Shown one piece after another: positions 2,774 to 7,938 of a stretch of DNA of 64,000 nt (its first letter is position 1; the number at the start of each line of letters is the position of its first letter). The notes beneath the pieces are model-generated. The model did not search any database. It was not told where the DNA came from and worked only from the letters and a program-made list of their open reading frames with translations. Source of the stretch: Salinibacter pepae (lineage in GTDB: Bacteria > Bacteroidota > Rhodothermia > Rhodothermales > Salinibacteraceae); contig NZ_CAMTTE010000001.1 in the NCBI RefSeq assembly GCF_947077775.1, positions 3,004,501 through 3,068,500 on the forward strand, written 5' to 3'. The translations under genes were made by a program, and so were the position numbers.

Positions 2774-2833
2774 AGTCCGCGTCCACCGACAGGGCGGGCC
2801 CGTTGATCCACTCGCCAATTGGCTTCTTGTGTT

Positions 2834-3655
2834 ATGGGCCGTTCGTTCCGTATCTCTGTGCCGGTGCGCTGGGGGCAGGCGTTTGCGATGGCCCTAGCGG
2901 GGCTACTGCTGGGGAGCGCACTTGCGTCGTCGGCGCGGGCCCAGTCTTCCGACGCGGCCAAGCCGGAGTTTGGGGACGCGCTCGCAGCGGTTGACAGTCT
3001 CCGTGCAGCGGGCGCCTTCCCGGCCGCGCAGGAGCGCCTGCAGTCGCTGCGCGAGCAGCACCCCGAACGGGTCCCGGTGCTGTGGCGCCTCGTCTACACC
3101 TACGCCGACCTCGGACAGTCCACCGACGAGGAGGACGTGCGGGCGCAGTACTACAACAATGCGCTCAACGTGGCGAAGGCCGGCCTGGCAGCGGACTCAA
3201 CCAGCGCCCGGGCCCACCTCGCAATGGCGGTGGCCCAGGGGCGGGCGGCCCTGGACGCCGGCACCCGCGAGCGCATCGAACGGTCCCGTGCGGTCAAGCG
3301 GCACGCGGACCGGGCCCTCGCCATCGACTCGACGCTCGACGGGGCCTACCACACGCGGGGCCGCTGGCACCGCGAGGTGGAAGACATTGGCTTCTTTCAG
3401 CGGGCCCTCGTCAAGACCGTGTACGGCGGGCTGCCCGAGTCCTCGATCGATCAGGCCGTGCGGGACTTTCGGCGCGCCCTGGAGCTCCGGGACCGGATCT
3501 TCCACCACTTGGAGCTCGGCAAGACCTACCGGCAGATGGACCGGCCGGACGCGGCGCGGCGCGAACTGCGGGCGGTCCTCGACATGCCGGCCGAGGAGCC
3601 CTTCGACCCGAAGTATAAGGACGAGGCGCGCCGGCTGCTCGACGATCTCGAATAG
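2834..3655 (+). CDS. secreted TPR-repeat protein
   Basis: The 273-residue protein has an N-terminal signal peptide (a hydrophobic stretch ending ASSARAQ, cleavage near residue 37). The rest is alpha-helical with tetratricopeptide-like repeats: about 45-80, a YYNNALNVAKAGLAADSTSARAHLAMA repeat region, and a final one near DFRRALELRD. It resembles bacterial proteins of the regulator-of-microtubule-dynamics TPR type. The likely role is a periplasmic scaffold. ATG 2834 was chosen because an upstream TTG would only add residues before the signal peptide. It sits 60 bases after holB and before the vWA/PP2C/kinase triad; a shared function with the triad is not shown. Confidence 0.75.
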   Translation: MGRSFRISVPVRWGQAFAMALAGLLLGSALASSARAQSSDAAKPEFGDALAAVDSLRAAGAFPAAQERLQSLREQHPERVPVLWRLVYTYADLGQSTDEEDVRAQYYNNALNVAKAGLAADSTSARAHLAMAVAQGRAALDAGTRERIERSRAVKRHADRALAIDSTLDGAYHTRGRWHREVEDIGFFQRALVKTVYGGLPESSIDQAVRDFRRALELRDRIFHHLELGKTYRQMDRPDAARRELRAVLDMPAEEPFDPKYKDEARRLLDDLE

Positions 3656-3768: not shown

Positions 3769-4635
3769 ATGCCGTATTCCGCCGAAATCAGTCGCCAGCA
3801 GCCCACCGCAATCCTGTTCTTGCTCGACCAGTCGGCGTCGATGCAGGAGCCGTTCGGCGGGGCGGAGAAGACCGGCGACGCCGCCCCCAGCCGGGCCCGC
3901 GTGCTGGCCGATACGGTGAACGACCTCCTGCAGAATCTGGTGCTGCGGTGCGCCAAGGAGGAGGGGGTGCGCGACTACTTCCACGTCGGCGTCATCGGCT
4001 ACGGGCAGCGCGTCCGGCGCCTGGTCCAGCCGACGGAGGAGTACGACCCCGGCACCGGGCTCGTCCCCATCAGTCACCTCGCCGACCGCCCCCAGCGCAT
4101 GGAGCAGCGGGTAAAGGAGGTGGACGACGGGGACGGCGGCACGACGGAGACGCGGGTCAAAACGCCGATCTGGTTCGATCCGCAGGCCAAGAACGGAACG
4201 CCGATGTGCCAGGCGCTCGACCTGGCGGCCCAGTCCGTGCGCGACTGGATCGACCAGCACCCGCATAGCTTCCCGCCCATCGTGCTGAACGTGACCGACG
4301 GGGAGGCGACCGATGGCGATCCGCTCCGCTACGCCCAGGAGCTCCGCTCGTTCGCGACCGACGACGGGGAGGTGCTGCTCTTCAACATCCACCTGTCCGC
4401 CTCGGAGGAGGCGCCGGTGGAGCTGCCCTCGGCCGCCGACGAGGTGCCAACGGACGACGAGTACGCCGAGGTGCTGTTTCAGATGTCGAGCCGCCTGCCG
4501 TTCTCCATGCGGTCCGCCGCCGAGCAGGAGGGCTACAGCGTGACGCTCGACACGCGCGGGTTCGTCTTCAACGCCGACCCGGTCTCGCTCGTCACATTCC
4601 TGGAAATCGGCACGCGGCCGAGCAACTTGCGGTAA
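3769..4635 (+). CDS. vWA-domain protein, TerY/YegL-like (first member of triad)
   Basis: The 288-residue protein is a von Willebrand factor A domain with a complete metal-ion-dependent adhesion site: DxSxS at Asp20, Ser22, Ser24, a Thr in NGTPM (Thr144) and an Asp in NVTDGE (Asp177). No signal peptide is present, so it is likely cytoplasmic. vWA domains of this kind (E. coli YegL, TerY) bind partner proteins through a metal ion. The gene is followed after 45 bases by a PP2C phosphatase gene and then a kinase gene, the same trio as yegL-yegK-yegI. The C-terminal about 60 residues carry an acidic stretch. The biochemical substrate is unknown. Confidence 0.85.
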   Translation: MPYSAEISRQQPTAILFLLDQSASMQEPFGGAEKTGDAAPSRARVLADTVNDLLQNLVLRCAKEEGVRDYFHVGVIGYGQRVRRLVQPTEEYDPGTGLVPISHLADRPQRMEQRVKEVDDGDGGTTETRVKTPIWFDPQAKNGTPMCQALDLAAQSVRDWIDQHPHSFPPIVLNVTDGEATDGDPLRYAQELRSFATDDGEVLLFNIHLSASEEAPVELPSAADEVPTDDEYAEVLFQMSSRLPFSMRSAAEQEGYSVTLDTRGFVFNADPVSLVTFLEIGTRPSNLR

Positions 4636-4680
4636 GGGAGGCACGGTTTCGTCCAGTCCATGCATTGATGAGGGGCGTCC

Positions 4681-5484
4681 ATGAGCGCGACCGCAGGGCC
4701 CGATTCGTCGGGGGGAGACGCGTCTGCGGTGGACGCCCGTGTCTGGGCCGTGTCGAAAGGCGATGCGAGCATGGACGCGTACGAGGACGCAGCGCATGTC
4801 CGGGCCGAGGCGTGGCCGGTCCGGGCCGCCGTGGCCGACGGGGCGACGGAATCGGCCTTCGCCGGGGCGTGGGCCGAGCGCCTGGCGTGCGGCGTGGTGG
4901 AGGAGGACGCAACCACCCCTGCGGCCCTGCGCCGGGCCGTCCCGGCGTGGCAGGCAGCGTGGCGGGACGCGGTCCGTGAGCGCGCCGCAGGGCGCCCCTG
5001 GTATGTCGAGGCGAAGGCGGAGGAGGGCGCCTTCGCCACGCTGCTGGGCCTGTCGCTGCGGGCCGGGGGGCAGTGGCGGGCCGTGGGCGTCGGGGACTGC
5101 TGCCTCTTTCGGGTGCGAGACGAGGCCCTCGTGCGGAGTTGGCCCCTCACCGCGGGCGAGACCTTCACGAATCGTCCCGCCCTCGTCCCCAGCCGCCCGA
5201 GTCAAACGCCGCCCACGCCCGAGGCTGCCTCGGGGGAGTGGCGCGCGGGCGATACCTTCGTGCTGGCCACCGACGCCGTCGCCGCCTGGCTCCTGAATTC
5301 GGAGTCCCCCGTCGGGCCCGCGACGGTCGGGGCGTGGAACGAGGAGCAGTTTCGGCGGGCCGTAGAGCAGGGGCGCACCGAGAACACGCTCCGCAACGAC
5401 GACGCCACGCTCCTCGTCGCACACGTGACCGAACCACCGTCTCCAGGCCGGGAGGCGGCGGCACCGCCCATGAACCAATCGTAG
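4681..5484 (+). CDS. PP2C-type Ser/Thr phosphatase (second member of triad)
   Basis: The 267-residue protein has the metal-coordinating motifs of PP2C phosphatases: VADGATES (Asp53), VGVGDCCLFRV (Asp139), LATDAVAAWLL (Asp198) and RNDDATLLV (Asp240/241). It has no transmembrane segment and probably removes phosphate groups added by the neighbouring kinase. The N-terminal aspartate that many PP2C enzymes carry in an RxxNED motif is replaced by a less canonical MDAYEDA segment, which is also seen in the compact PP2Cs of TerY-P/YegK loci. The start codon lies 45 bases after the vWA gene, and the kinase gene begins 17 bases after the stop, so the three are probably one transcript. Confidence 0.85.
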   Translation: MSATAGPDSSGGDASAVDARVWAVSKGDASMDAYEDAAHVRAEAWPVRAAVADGATESAFAGAWAERLACGVVEEDATTPAALRRAVPAWQAAWRDAVRERAAGRPWYVEAKAEEGAFATLLGLSLRAGGQWRAVGVGDCCLFRVRDEALVRSWPLTAGETFTNRPALVPSRPSQTPPTPEAASGEWRAGDTFVLATDAVAAWLLNSESPVGPATVGAWNEEQFRRAVEQGRTENTLRNDDATLLVAHVTEPPSPGREAAAPPMNQS

Positions 5485-5501
5485 GGACGAGACGCCCCGT
5501 C

Positions 5502-7325
5502 ATGTCCAGCTATCCCACCCCGAGCGAGTACCAGGAGGCCCTCCAGGCCCCCGCCGTGGCGTTTGCGGACCCTGAGCTCCAAGACAGCACGCCCCGCACC
5601 AACGCGCTCGGCCTGCCGCAGCCCATCACCGGGTCGTTCGCCGCCGTCTTCCCGGTGACGACGGACTCGGGGGGGCGGTACGCGGTCAAGTGCTTCCTAT
5701 CGGAGAGGCCCGCCCAGCACGCCCGGTACGAGGCCGTTGCCGAGGCCCTGGACGCGGTCGGCCACGACGCGTTCGTCGAGTTTGCGTACCAGCCGGAGGG
5801 CATCTCGGTGCGAGGGGACGCATATCCATTGCTCAAGATGGAGTGGACCGGGGGCACCACCCTGAACCGGTTCGTGGAGGACCACCTCGATCGGCCCGAT
5901 GTGCTCGCTCGCCTGGTGGAGGCCTGGGCCCGCCTGATGGCGGACCTCGAGGACATGGACCTGGCCCACGGCGACCTTCAGCACGGGAATGTACTGGTGG
6001 AAACGGCGGGCGAGGCGCTGCGCCTCCGCCTCGTCGACTACGATACCATGTATGTGCCGGCGCTGGAGGGGCGGGCGAGCGCGGAGGTGGGACACCGCAA
6101 TTACCAGCATCCCGACCGCACCGACGCCGACTTTGGGCCCGCCCTGGACCGGTTTTCCGGGCTCGTCGTCTACGCCGCCCTGCGGGCCTGCGCCGTCCGG
6201 CCCGAGCTGTGGGACGAGTACGACACGGGAGAGAACCTGCTCTTCCGCGACGCCGACTTCTACGCCCCCGAAGAGTCGCCCCTCTTCGACGCCCTGGCCG
6301 AGACCGAGTCCCTCCGGGCGCTGACCGGCGCGCTGCGGACGGCCTGCTACGTGGAGCCCGCCGACGTGCCGCCCCTGGCGGACGTGCGGGAGGGGCGGCT
6401 GGAGCCAAGTCAGGTCTCGGTCTCCCGGTCCCGGGCGCGGCAGGGGCGCGACGCGGCGGAGCGGAGCACGGCGGCCCGCGCCTTCCTGCCCGCGACGATC
6501 GGGGGCGGCGGGATTGCTCTTGGGCTGGCCGCGGCGGGGTGGGCCCTCACTGCCGCCGCGGTGCTGCTGGTTGGCATCGGCGTGGGGGCGGGGATCGTCG
6601 CGACGCGGTACCGGCGTCTCTCCCTCGTCCGGCGCCGCCGCCGACTGGAGCAGGAGGCCGACCGCTTCGCGTCCACGATCCGGGAGCTCGAGCGCGAGGG
6701 GGAGAGCCTCCAGGAGAAGCGCGCGGAGTTGCGCACGTCGATGGACGAGCGGCGGCAGGAGCGGCTGCGGGAGATTCAGGCGAAGGCGCTTCACGACCGC
6801 CTGAAGCACCACTTTGTCAGGGAGGTGCGGGACATCGACGGGCTCACCCACAAGCACGTCGTGCGGCTGAAGGCCGCCAACCTTCGCACCGCCTCGGAGG
6901 TCACGCCCGAGGCCGTCGAGGACGTGCGCCGCATCAGCGACCGGGCCCGCGCCCGGCTTAAGATGTGGCGGGCGGCGTTGGAGGAAAAGTACGCCGACGA
7001 GATTCCGGATGCGCTGTCCCCGGCCCAGGAGCGGCGCCTGCAACGCTACATCGAGCACCGGATCGATGATCTCGACGACCAGATCGGTCGCACCCGCGAA
7101 AAGATACAGACGCAGCGGACAGAGCGCGAGCGCATCAAGGACCGGCTCGACGAGATGCCGGACCTGAGCGTTGGGCGCTACGTGCGCTACCTGCTTCGGC
7201 TCGACACGCTGCCGGACCGGACGGAGGGCCCCCCCGTGCCCGCGCCGCGCTCCGGTCCCGAGTCGTCCACCGATCATGTGCCGGTTCCAGGGCCGGTTGA
7301 CGAGGACCGCTCGTGGTGGGAATGA
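5502..7325 (+). CDS. membrane-anchored protein kinase with coiled coil and HhH domain, YegI-like (third member of triad)
   Basis: The 607-residue protein has an N-terminal kinase domain: ATP-binding Lys63 in YAVKCF, catalytic loop HGDLQHGN (Asp158, Asn163) and a metal-binding DYD (Asp179) in place of DFG. Two hydrophobic segments follow at about 328-370, then a long charged coiled coil. A helix-hairpin-helix-like module follows (about 440-490, IDGLTHKHVVRLKAANLRTA) and then more coiled coil. The layout of kinase, membrane segments and HhH matches E. coli YegI and the kinases of TerY-P triads described by comparative genomics, which were linked to DNA or nucleic-acid processing. The upstream frame is longer, but the phosphatase gene occupies it and ATG 5502 is well placed. 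The target is unknown. Confidence 0.83.
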   Translation: MSSYPTPSEYQEALQAPAVAFADPELQDSTPRTNALGLPQPITGSFAAVFPVTTDSGGRYAVKCFLSERPAQHARYEAVAEALDAVGHDAFVEFAYQPEGISVRGDAYPLLKMEWTGGTTLNRFVEDHLDRPDVLARLVEAWARLMADLEDMDLAHGDLQHGNVLVETAGEALRLRLVDYDTMYVPALEGRASAEVGHRNYQHPDRTDADFGPALDRFSGLVVYAALRACAVRPELWDEYDTGENLLFRDADFYAPEESPLFDALAETESLRALTGALRTACYVEPADVPPLADVREGRLEPSQVSVSRSRARQGRDAAERSTAARAFLPATIGGGGIALGLAAAGWALTAAAVLLVGIGVGAGIVATRYRRLSLVRRRRRLEQEADRFASTIRELEREGESLQEKRAELRTSMDERRQERLREIQAKALHDRLKHHFVREVRDIDGLTHKHVVRLKAANLRTASEVTPEAVEDVRRISDRARARLKMWRAALEEKYADEIPDALSPAQERRLQRYIEHRIDDLDDQIGRTREKIQTQRTERERIKDRLDEMPDLSVGRYVRYLLRLDTLPDRTEGPPVPAPRSGPESSTDHVPVPGPVDEDRSWWE

Positions 7326-7363: not shown

Positions 7364-7780
7364 CTACTCGTCTTCGTCCCAGAGGTCTTCCAGGTCGTCG
7401 ATCGTCGTGTCCGACGGTTCCTCCTCGGGGGTGTCGTCGCCGCGCACGAGGGCGAGGATGGCGTTGTGTTGGACGATCATGTAGTTCGTCTCCTCGTAGC
7501 GCAGGTCGATCGCCTCATTGCCCATAAAGAAGGCGTAGTCGCCCGGGTCGGCCTGGAGCGGCAGGTACCGGACGGGCGTTTCGGACTCCTTCCAGGTTTC
7601 GCTCTCGCTGTACTCGGGATTCTGGGTCAGGTAGCCCGGCCCGGTTTTGACGACCCGCCCGCTCACCACCTCTCCCTGCTGGGATACCGACGCGGGCAGT
7701 ACAAGACCGGTGTCCGTTTTGTCTTCGCCAGTCTGTGGCTCGATGAGAACGCGATCGCCGACGACAATCAGGTCCGCCAT
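7364..7780 (-). CDS. divergent GroES-like co-chaperonin (Cpn10 fold)
   Basis: The 138-residue protein starts like GroES: IVVGDRVLIEPQTGEDKTDTGLVLPAS, in which the TGLVLP segment corresponds to the mobile loop that docks on GroEL. It ends the fold with a YMIVQHNAILALV strand. It differs from the usual 95-residue GroES in two ways: an insert of about 25 residues after VKTGPG (residues about 48-75) and an acidic tail of about 25 residues. No groEL gene lies next to it. The likely role is a second, specialised co-chaperonin, or a Cpn10-fold protein with another job. ATG 7780 was chosen because the homology begins exactly there. Confidence 0.8.
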   Translation of the reverse strand: MADLIVVGDRVLIEPQTGEDKTDTGLVLPASVSQQGEVVSGRVVKTGPGYLTQNPEYSESETWKESETPVRYLPLQADPGDYAFFMGNEAIDLRYEETNYMIVQHNAILALVRGDDTPEEEPSDTTIDDLEDLWDEDE

Positions 7781-7938
7781 AAACAGGAGCGTGAACTCGT
7801 AGAGAGAACGGGGAACGGGACAAAAAAAGACAACGGACCCAACGGTGCCGTCGACTGCAGGTTCATGCTCCCGCTCGGTTTGCACAAAAACCATACGTGT
7901 CTTTGGCGCCGGGCCCGGACGAACGCGGGTGTCCTGGA

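What the first reader, a model, noticed from the sequence alone, without database searches (positions are those of the whole stretch)
3769..7325. vWA / PP2C / membrane-kinase-HhH triad, a YegL-YegK-YegI-like signalling system
Three adjacent genes encode a cytoplasmic MIDAS-intact vWA protein, a PP2C phosphatase and a kinase with membrane helices, long coiled coils and an HhH module. Seen directly: motifs and tight spacing (45 and 17 bases). Known: E. coli yegI/yegK/yegL and TerY-P triads have the same parts and were linked by comparative genomics to stress or nucleic-acid processing, but the output is unknown. A kinase that joins the membrane to a probable DNA-binding HhH is unusual. The upstream secreted TPR gene may or may not belong.
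Basis: partly seen in the sequence, partly recalled or inferred. Interest (0 to 1): 0.6.

Follow-up and report, generated by a model that had tools for sequence, protein, structure and literature searches.

The report
TerY-P-type kinase–phosphatase–vWA switch
Three neighbouring genes of this salt-loving bacterium form a membrane-tethered protein-phosphorylation switch; its parts are known from the TerY-P anti-phage triads and from E. coli YegI, but here it is a stable, inherited chromosomal module, and the supposed DNA-binding tip of the kinase has lost most of its DNA-gripping signature.

Summary
The triad is real. vWA (3769-4635), PP2C (4681-5484) and kinase (5502-7325) lie 45 and 17 bases apart. 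MIDAS, PP2C metal residues and kinase catalytic residues are conserved in about 90 relatives from many phyla. In the host's order all three genes occur together in 38 of 114 genomes, and none scores strongly without the others apart from one kinase fragment. Three genomes keep all three although the vWA gene lies apart, so the linkage is functional. By sequence the vWA, PP2C and kinase domain are TerY-P type (PADLOC TerY E=4e-96, STK_OB 7e-84), not YegL/YegK/YegI; only the kinase's coiled-coil–(HhH)2 tail matches E. coli YegI (hhalign 98.7%). It replaces the OB fold or zinc ribbon of described TerY-P kinases. The same hybrid occurs in many other phyla. In Rhodothermales the two HhH hairpins have lost the GhG signature (1/22 and 0/22 keep it, versus 13/17 and 16/17 elsewhere) but the region stays basic, so DNA binding is uncertain. 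The GroES-like gene is near-universal and not a partner; the TPR gene is a loose neighbour. Flanks are housekeeping genes, not a defence island. Most likely: a core, membrane-tethered Ser/Thr switch reading a cytoplasmic cue; a variant of a known kind.

The parts
3769..4635 (+). TerY-type vWA protein (288 aa), cytoplasmic, MIDAS intact (D20xS22xS24 at 3826-3840, T144 at 4198-4200, D177 at 4297-4299)
   Evidence: PADLOC TerY PDLC02224 E=3.8e-96 full length; MIDAS at least 95% conserved in 86 sequences; 74-93% identity to six representatives across the order
4681..5484 (+). PP2C-type Ser/Thr phosphatase (267 aa), metal-binding Asp/Glu conserved
   Evidence: Pfam PP2C_2 8.5e-10; PADLOC PP2C PDLC02222 5.4e-26; catalytic residues conserved in 92 sequences
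5502..7325 (+). Membrane Ser/Thr kinase (607 aa) with TerY-P-type catalytic domain and YegI-type tail
   Evidence: Pfam Pkinase 8e-8; PADLOC STK_OB 7e-84 over the kinase domain only, profile 2-308 of 562; AF2 model pLDDT 85
5502..6395 (+). Kinase catalytic domain, aa 1-298 (HGDLQHGN, DYD)
6468..6617 (+). Two adjoining membrane helices (aa 323-372) flanked on both sides by basic stretches; probable hairpin with no outside domain
   Evidence: helices 323-344 and 348-372; net charge +3 before and +4 after
6621..6803 (+). Coiled-coil helix 1 (aa 374-434), one arm of the predicted stalk
6804..6992 (+). Degenerate tandem helix-hairpin-helix unit (aa 435-497) between the coiled-coil arms; net charge +5 in an otherwise acidic protein
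   Evidence: HMM of this region hits YegI (4e-5) and other phyla (to 8e-14); hhalign 98.7%, 1.8e-16; GhG tally; charge
7020..7154 (+). Coiled-coil helix 2 (aa 507-551), return arm
7314..7322 (+). Conserved C-terminal Trp-Trp-Glu tail at the end of a disordered Pro-rich linker (aa 574-607)
   Evidence: WW near the C-terminus in nearly all full-length Rhodothermales kinases; linker pLDDT under 50
2819..3655 (+). Upstream TPR gene: neighbour, not a core part
   Evidence: Pfam RMD1-3 3.8e-14; next to the vWA in families f1 and f2, elsewhere in G260 and G030
7364..7894 (-). Downstream convergent GroES-like (Cpn10) gene: synteny marker, not a partner
   Evidence: match in 107 of 114 genomes of the order, most of them without the triad

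Best explanation
The locus encodes a membrane-tethered Ser/Thr phospho-switch of the TerY-P class. SHOWN by sequence: an active-looking kinase, an active-looking PP2C and a MIDAS-intact TerY-type vWA protein that are inherited together. INFERRED: the kinase sits on the inner membrane by a two-helix hairpin and has no outside domain, so it reads a cytoplasmic cue. Its antiparallel coiled-coil stalk carries a basic (HhH)2 unit, the likely input and dimerisation site, where a nucleic acid or protein ligand would favour trans-autophosphorylation. The PP2C resets the kinase, as PphC does to YegI. The vWA protein, the most conserved part, is the Mg-dependent adaptor or effector that is phosphorylated or docks the pair, perhaps through the kinase's conserved C-terminal WW tail. 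In Rhodothermales this is an inherited housekeeping/stress module, not a mobile defence cassette. The HhH has drifted from the DNA-gripping form, so a protein partner is somewhat more likely than plain DNA.
For: Co-inheritance: vWA, PP2C and kinase in the same 38 of 114 genomes. In G253, G257 and G260 PP2C-kinase lie apart from the vWA, yet all three persist. The order vWA-PP2C-kinase holds in most of 59 loci from outside Rhodothermota. Catalytic residues conserved in about 90 sequences. TerY-P identity. Tail homologous to YegI. Membrane/stalk/HhH layout predicted with good confidence; basic flanks on both sides of the membrane helices and a basic HhH. YegI is membrane bound, autophosphorylates and is dephosphorylated by PphC (cited in PMC13232886). 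YabT is a precedent for a membrane kinase without outside domain that is activated from the cytosol (PMC3708118). Flanking genes are housekeeping: DNA polymerase III delta-prime, 6-phosphogluconolactonase family, histidine kinase, PIG-L deacetylase. No TerD in the genome.
Against: No experiment on any Rhodothermales member. The beta-3 lysine is arginine in some orthologues ('AVRCF', Rhodothermus group), which would harm a standard Hanks kinase. The vWA role and the WW-tail docking are guesses. No expression data. Presence is patchy between families of the order, so the module has been gained or lost several times.
Confidence: 0.55

Rival explanations
1. It is an anti-phage TerY-P defence system: phage infection triggers the kinase and the vWA/PP2C set the response.
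For: All three proteins match PADLOC TerY-P models. TerY-P triads protect against T7-like phages (Gao 2020 as summarised in PMC7699616), with an OB-fold kinase (PMC11090510), and TerY-P protects P. aeruginosa against Autographiviridae (PMC10889362).
Against: The kinase tail is not the OB fold (match ends at profile 308 of 562). Neighbours are housekeeping genes with no credible defence hit. Same locus, conserved flanks and 74-100% identical vWA across the group, unlike a mobile cassette.
Confidence: 0.2
2. DNA-activated membrane kinase in the manner of B. subtilis YabT: the HhH tip binds DNA and switches the kinase on, linking chromosome state to the membrane.
For: Tandem HhH homologous to canonical forms. 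A profile of the canonical relatives hits HhH regions of RAD51, DNA polymerase IV and FEN1 (weak, E 0.005-0.08). The tail model resembles the RAD51/RadA N-domain and NusA AR2. HhH net charge +5 on average in otherwise acidic proteins. YabT needs a DNA-binding region for activation.
Against: GhG lost in hairpin 1 (1/22 kept) and hairpin 2 (0/22 kept) of Rhodothermales. No Foldseek match better than E 0.2. The NusA AR2 match is to a domain bound to a protein, SuhB.
Confidence: 0.2
3. The kinase domain is an atypical phosphotransferase or pseudokinase, and the output is not Ser/Thr phosphorylation.
For: Similar weak scores to ABC1, Kdo/WaaP, RIO and APH families; beta-3 Lys to Arg in one subgroup.
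Against: Catalytic Asp, Asn and the DYD Asp conserved; constant pairing with a PP2C; YegI, described as lacking conserved motifs, autophosphorylates on serine.
Confidence: 0.05

Closest known systems
TerY-P triad (TerY vWA, PP2C, STK with C-terminal OB fold or zinc ribbon; PADLOC TerY/PP2C/STK_OB)
   Same: Same three families by sequence, same gene set, MIDAS and catalytic residues intact
   Different: Kinase tail is TM hairpin plus coiled coil plus (HhH)2 plus WW tail instead of OB or zinc ribbon; chromosomal, housekeeping neighbourhood, inherited within the family
E. coli YegI-PphC(YegK)-YegL
   Same: Same three kinds of protein; kinase tail homologous over coiled coil and HhH (hhalign 98.7%); membrane kinase dephosphorylated by the neighbouring PP2C
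   Different: Kinase domain, PP2C and vWA not close (BLASTP E 0.20, 0.091, 0.001; no TerY-P model match for the E. coli proteins); YegI keeps canonical GhG in both hairpins; yegJ interrupts in K-12
B. subtilis YabT
   Same: Membrane-anchored Hanks-type kinase with no outside domain and a cytosolic activating region; its structure (6g4j) is among the PDB matches of the kinase model
   Different: DNA-binding region is a basic juxtamembrane stretch, no coiled-coil stalk or HhH, single TM helix, no vWA/PP2C triad

Membership tests
TerY-P triad | TerY-type vWA with intact MIDAS | tested here: met
   PADLOC TerY 3.8e-96 over full length; MIDAS conserved
TerY-P triad | Adjacent PP2C phosphatase of the TerY-P type | tested here: met
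   PADLOC PP2C 5.4e-26; catalytic residues conserved
TerY-P triad | Ser/Thr kinase domain of the TerY-P (STK_OB) type | tested here: met
   STK_OB 7e-84 over the kinase domain; relatives of many phyla match likewise
TerY-P triad | C-terminal OB fold (defence type) or zinc ribbon on the kinase | tested here: not met
   STK_OB match ends at profile 308 of 562; tail is helical TM/coiled-coil/HhH in the model
TerY-P triad | Anti-phage protection | not testable with these tools
   needs phage assays; the neighbourhood gives no support
YegI-PphC-YegL system | Kinase tail with coiled coil and tandem HhH after membrane helices | tested here: met
   HMM hit to YegI 4e-5, hhalign 98.7%, BLASTP 2e-6 over aa 364-508
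YegI-PphC-YegL system | Catalytic kinase domain, PP2C and vWA orthologous to YegI, PphC, YegL | tested here: not met
   Rhodothermales kinase-domain, PP2C and vWA HMMs do not hit the E. coli proteins at 1e-3; BLASTP marginal or absent; E. coli proteins miss the TerY-P models
Helix-hairpin-helix DNA-binding domain | GhG in the hairpins that contact the DNA backbone | tested here: not met
   1 of 22 and 0 of 22 Rhodothermales sequences keep GhG, against 13 of 17 and 16 of 17 elsewhere
Helix-hairpin-helix DNA-binding domain | Homology to tandem HhH units | tested here: met
   relatives hit Pfam HHH_5 in 11 of 14
Helix-hairpin-helix DNA-binding domain | Same fold as solved HhH domains | tested here: inconclusive
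   Foldseek matches include the RAD51/RadA N-domain and NusA AR2, E 0.2 or worse; VIA-align list filled by coiled coils

The most novel reading that the evidence does not exclude
TerY-P triads are not one kind of mobile defence system but a broad, ancient phospho-switch in which one catalytic core (vWA-PP2C-kinase) is plugged into interchangeable kinase tails: OB, zinc ribbon, WD40-like or TPR repeats, or a YegI membrane/(HhH)2 stalk. The Rhodothermales form is a core, non-defence version in which the HhH has turned from DNA to a protein ligand and the C-terminal WW(E) tail docks the vWA MIDAS.
Probability: 0.2. Interest if true: 0.55.

Novelty: new variant of a known kind. Interest (0 to 1): 0.36.

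Why it matters
It ties two poorly understood systems, the TerY-P anti-phage triad and the E. coli YegI pathway, to one shared toolkit. It warns that defence-finding software may call this module 'TerY-P defence' in genomes where it looks like an inherited core gene set. Salinibacter, where the three genes are single-copy and linked, gives a clean place to ask what the vWA partner does.

Tried and rejected
Fourth partner: GroES-like gene rejected (match in 107 of 114 genomes); TPR gene rejected as core (absent or remote in several triad genomes). Apparent loss of the kinase next to the vWA in G253, G257 and G260 was first read as a lone vWA; rejected because PP2C-kinase was found elsewhere in each genome. 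Pfam search for HhH in the window protein: nothing. PDB sequence search with the Rhodothermales tail: nothing credible. The 50 best rows of the whole-model fold search were all kinases; the tail-only VIA-align list was dominated by coiled coils and does not identify the HhH. TerD in the genome: none. The 2012 comparative-genomics paper on TerY-P and the YegI/PphC primary papers are not held, so claims on them come through citing papers or memory. G258, which lacks all of these genes, is probably an assembly gap or one deletion: TPR and the close GroES-like gene are missing with them.
Full report
WHAT IS THERE. Pfam recognises PP2C_2 (8.5e-10), Pkinase (8e-8) and VWA_2 (7e-6). PADLOC gives a sharper answer: vWA = TerY (3.8e-96, full length), PP2C (5.4e-26), kinase = STK_OB (7e-84), the last only over the catalytic domain, profile positions 2-308 of 562. 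The window is in a 3.63 Mb genome of three contigs; the nearest named relatives are Salinibacter and other Rhodothermales.

IS IT A UNIT? Within the host's order (114 genomes) the vWA is found in 38, the PP2C strongly in 38 and the kinase strongly in 39; 38 genomes hold all three and the one extra kinase is a fragment in a broken assembly. In 32 of 37 genomes checked vWA and kinase lie within 6 kb. In G253 and G260 they are more than 1 Mb apart on one contig, and in G257 the vWA is followed by unrelated genes while PP2C-kinase is on another contig; yet all three are kept. The other two exceptions look like contig breaks. In Rhodothermus an isocitrate lyase gene and an HTH-M78 gene lie between PP2C and kinase, and the kinase still persists. 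Outside Rhodothermota, the order vWA-PP2C-kinase is seen in most of 59 loci, from Chloroflexota, Planctomycetota, Actinomycetota, Paenibacillus, Cyanobacteria, Verrucomicrobiota, Acidobacteriota and Archaeoglobales. Catalytic residues of all three proteins are conserved at 95% or more in 86-93 sequences.

THE KINASE. The AlphaFold2 model (22 sequences, pLDDT 85) has a kinase domain, two adjoining helices 323-344 and 348-372, long helices 374-434 and 507-551, short helices between them, and a disordered tail. Basic residues flank the membrane helices on both sides (+3 and +4 in the window protein, means +5.8 and +5.2), which fits a hairpin with both ends inside and no outside sensor; this topology is inferred, not shown. 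The HhH: Pfam sees nothing in the window protein and at best E=0.14 in 2 of 22 orthologues. But an HMM of this region from Rhodothermales finds E. coli YegI (4e-5) and TerY-P-type kinases of other phyla (to 8e-14) among 16,626 reading frames; the alignment is in register through the motif I-x-G-h-G...GIxTAxDV...GIG...W; hhalign gives 98.7%, E 1.8e-16, though coiled-coil flanks help that score; 11 of 14 relatives hit Pfam HHH_5. So the unit is homologous to tandem HhH. Its signature is eroded: hairpin 1 keeps GhG in 1 of 22 and hairpin 2 in 0 of 22 Rhodothermales sequences, against 13 of 17 and 16 of 17 elsewhere. It is still a markedly positive segment of an otherwise acidic protein (+5, mean +5.4). 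The tail model (pLDDT 97) resembles the RAD51/RadA N-domain and NusA AR2 only at E 0.2 or worse; NusA AR2 in that list is bound to a protein. Whether the stalk tip meets nucleic acid or protein is open.

TERY-P OR YEGI? The HMMs for Rhodothermales kinase domain, PP2C and vWA find no E. coli yeg protein at 1e-3; only the tail HMM does. BLASTP: kinase versus YegI aligns aa 364-508 (2e-6) but the kinase domain only at 0.20; vWA versus YegL 0.001; PP2C versus PphC 0.091. YegI, PphC and YegL miss the TerY-P models, whereas kinases of other phyla, with and without a canonical HhH tail, hit STK_OB at 1e-73 to 1e-83. The module is thus a TerY-P-type core with a YegI-type kinase tail, and this hybrid is widespread. 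Published TerY-P kinases carry a zinc ribbon or an OB fold (PMC11090510), so the tail breaks the membership test for the described defence form.

FUNCTION. TerY-P protects against T7-like phages (PMC7699616) and in P. aeruginosa against Autographiviridae with most cells surviving (PMC10889362). Here the flanks are DNA polymerase III delta-prime, a 6-phosphogluconolactonase-family gene, a histidine kinase, a PIG-L deacetylase and a binding protein, without credible defence hits. The vWA protein is 74-100% identical across most of the group, against roughly 42-52% for PP2C and kinase over the same longer distances. That pattern fits an inherited core function with the vWA as the constrained element. 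YegI is membrane bound, autophosphorylates on serine and is dephosphorylated by PphC (cited in PMC13232886); YabT shows that a membrane kinase without outside domain can be switched on from the cytosol by DNA (PMC3708118). The favoured model is a membrane-tethered phospho-switch with a cytoplasmic cue, kinase and PP2C in opposition, and the vWA protein as Mg-dependent adaptor or effector. Steps beyond co-inheritance, catalytic residues and layout are inference.

A NEW DETAIL. Nearly all full-length Rhodothermales kinases end, after a disordered Pro-rich linker, in a WW pair followed mostly by E, Q, T or D close to the C-terminus; one Anaerolineae kinase does too (L108, 'SPWWKQNSI'). MIDAS domains commonly bind an acidic side chain of a ligand (established knowledge), so docking of this tail on the vWA protein is a testable guess.

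NEIGHBOURS.

Noticed in passing
window 7314-7322 and C-termini of relatives: Conserved Trp-Trp pair (mostly WWE/WWQ/WWT) at the extreme C-terminus of nearly all Rhodothermales kinases after a disordered Pro-rich linker; also in one Anaerolineae kinase (L108). Function unknown.
   Followed up: partly
kinase aa 61-65 'AVKCF' (window 5682-5696); L007, L010, L011, L012, L081, L058: The beta-3 lysine of the kinase is arginine (AVRCF) in the Rhodothermus group and one other, while the other catalytic residues are invariant.
   Followed up: no
L053, L054, L061 (Rhodothermus group): An isocitrate lyase gene and an HTH plus M78-peptidase regulator gene are inserted between PP2C and kinase.
   Followed up: partly
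L152, L116, L121, L133, L145, L154, L157: Relatives of the kinase end in TPR repeats (Archaeoglobales L152) or in WD40-like repeats by eye, so the tail is an interchangeable module.
   Followed up: no
G214 and G215 (loci L059, L060, L079, L086): Family f40 genomes carry a more divergent vWA-PP2C-kinase set (about 38-50% identity) or extra kinase copies.
   Followed up: no
window 3769-4635: The vWA protein evolves far more slowly than its two partners (for example 96% against 70% and 82% in G195; 74% against 49% and 51% in G030).
   Followed up: partly
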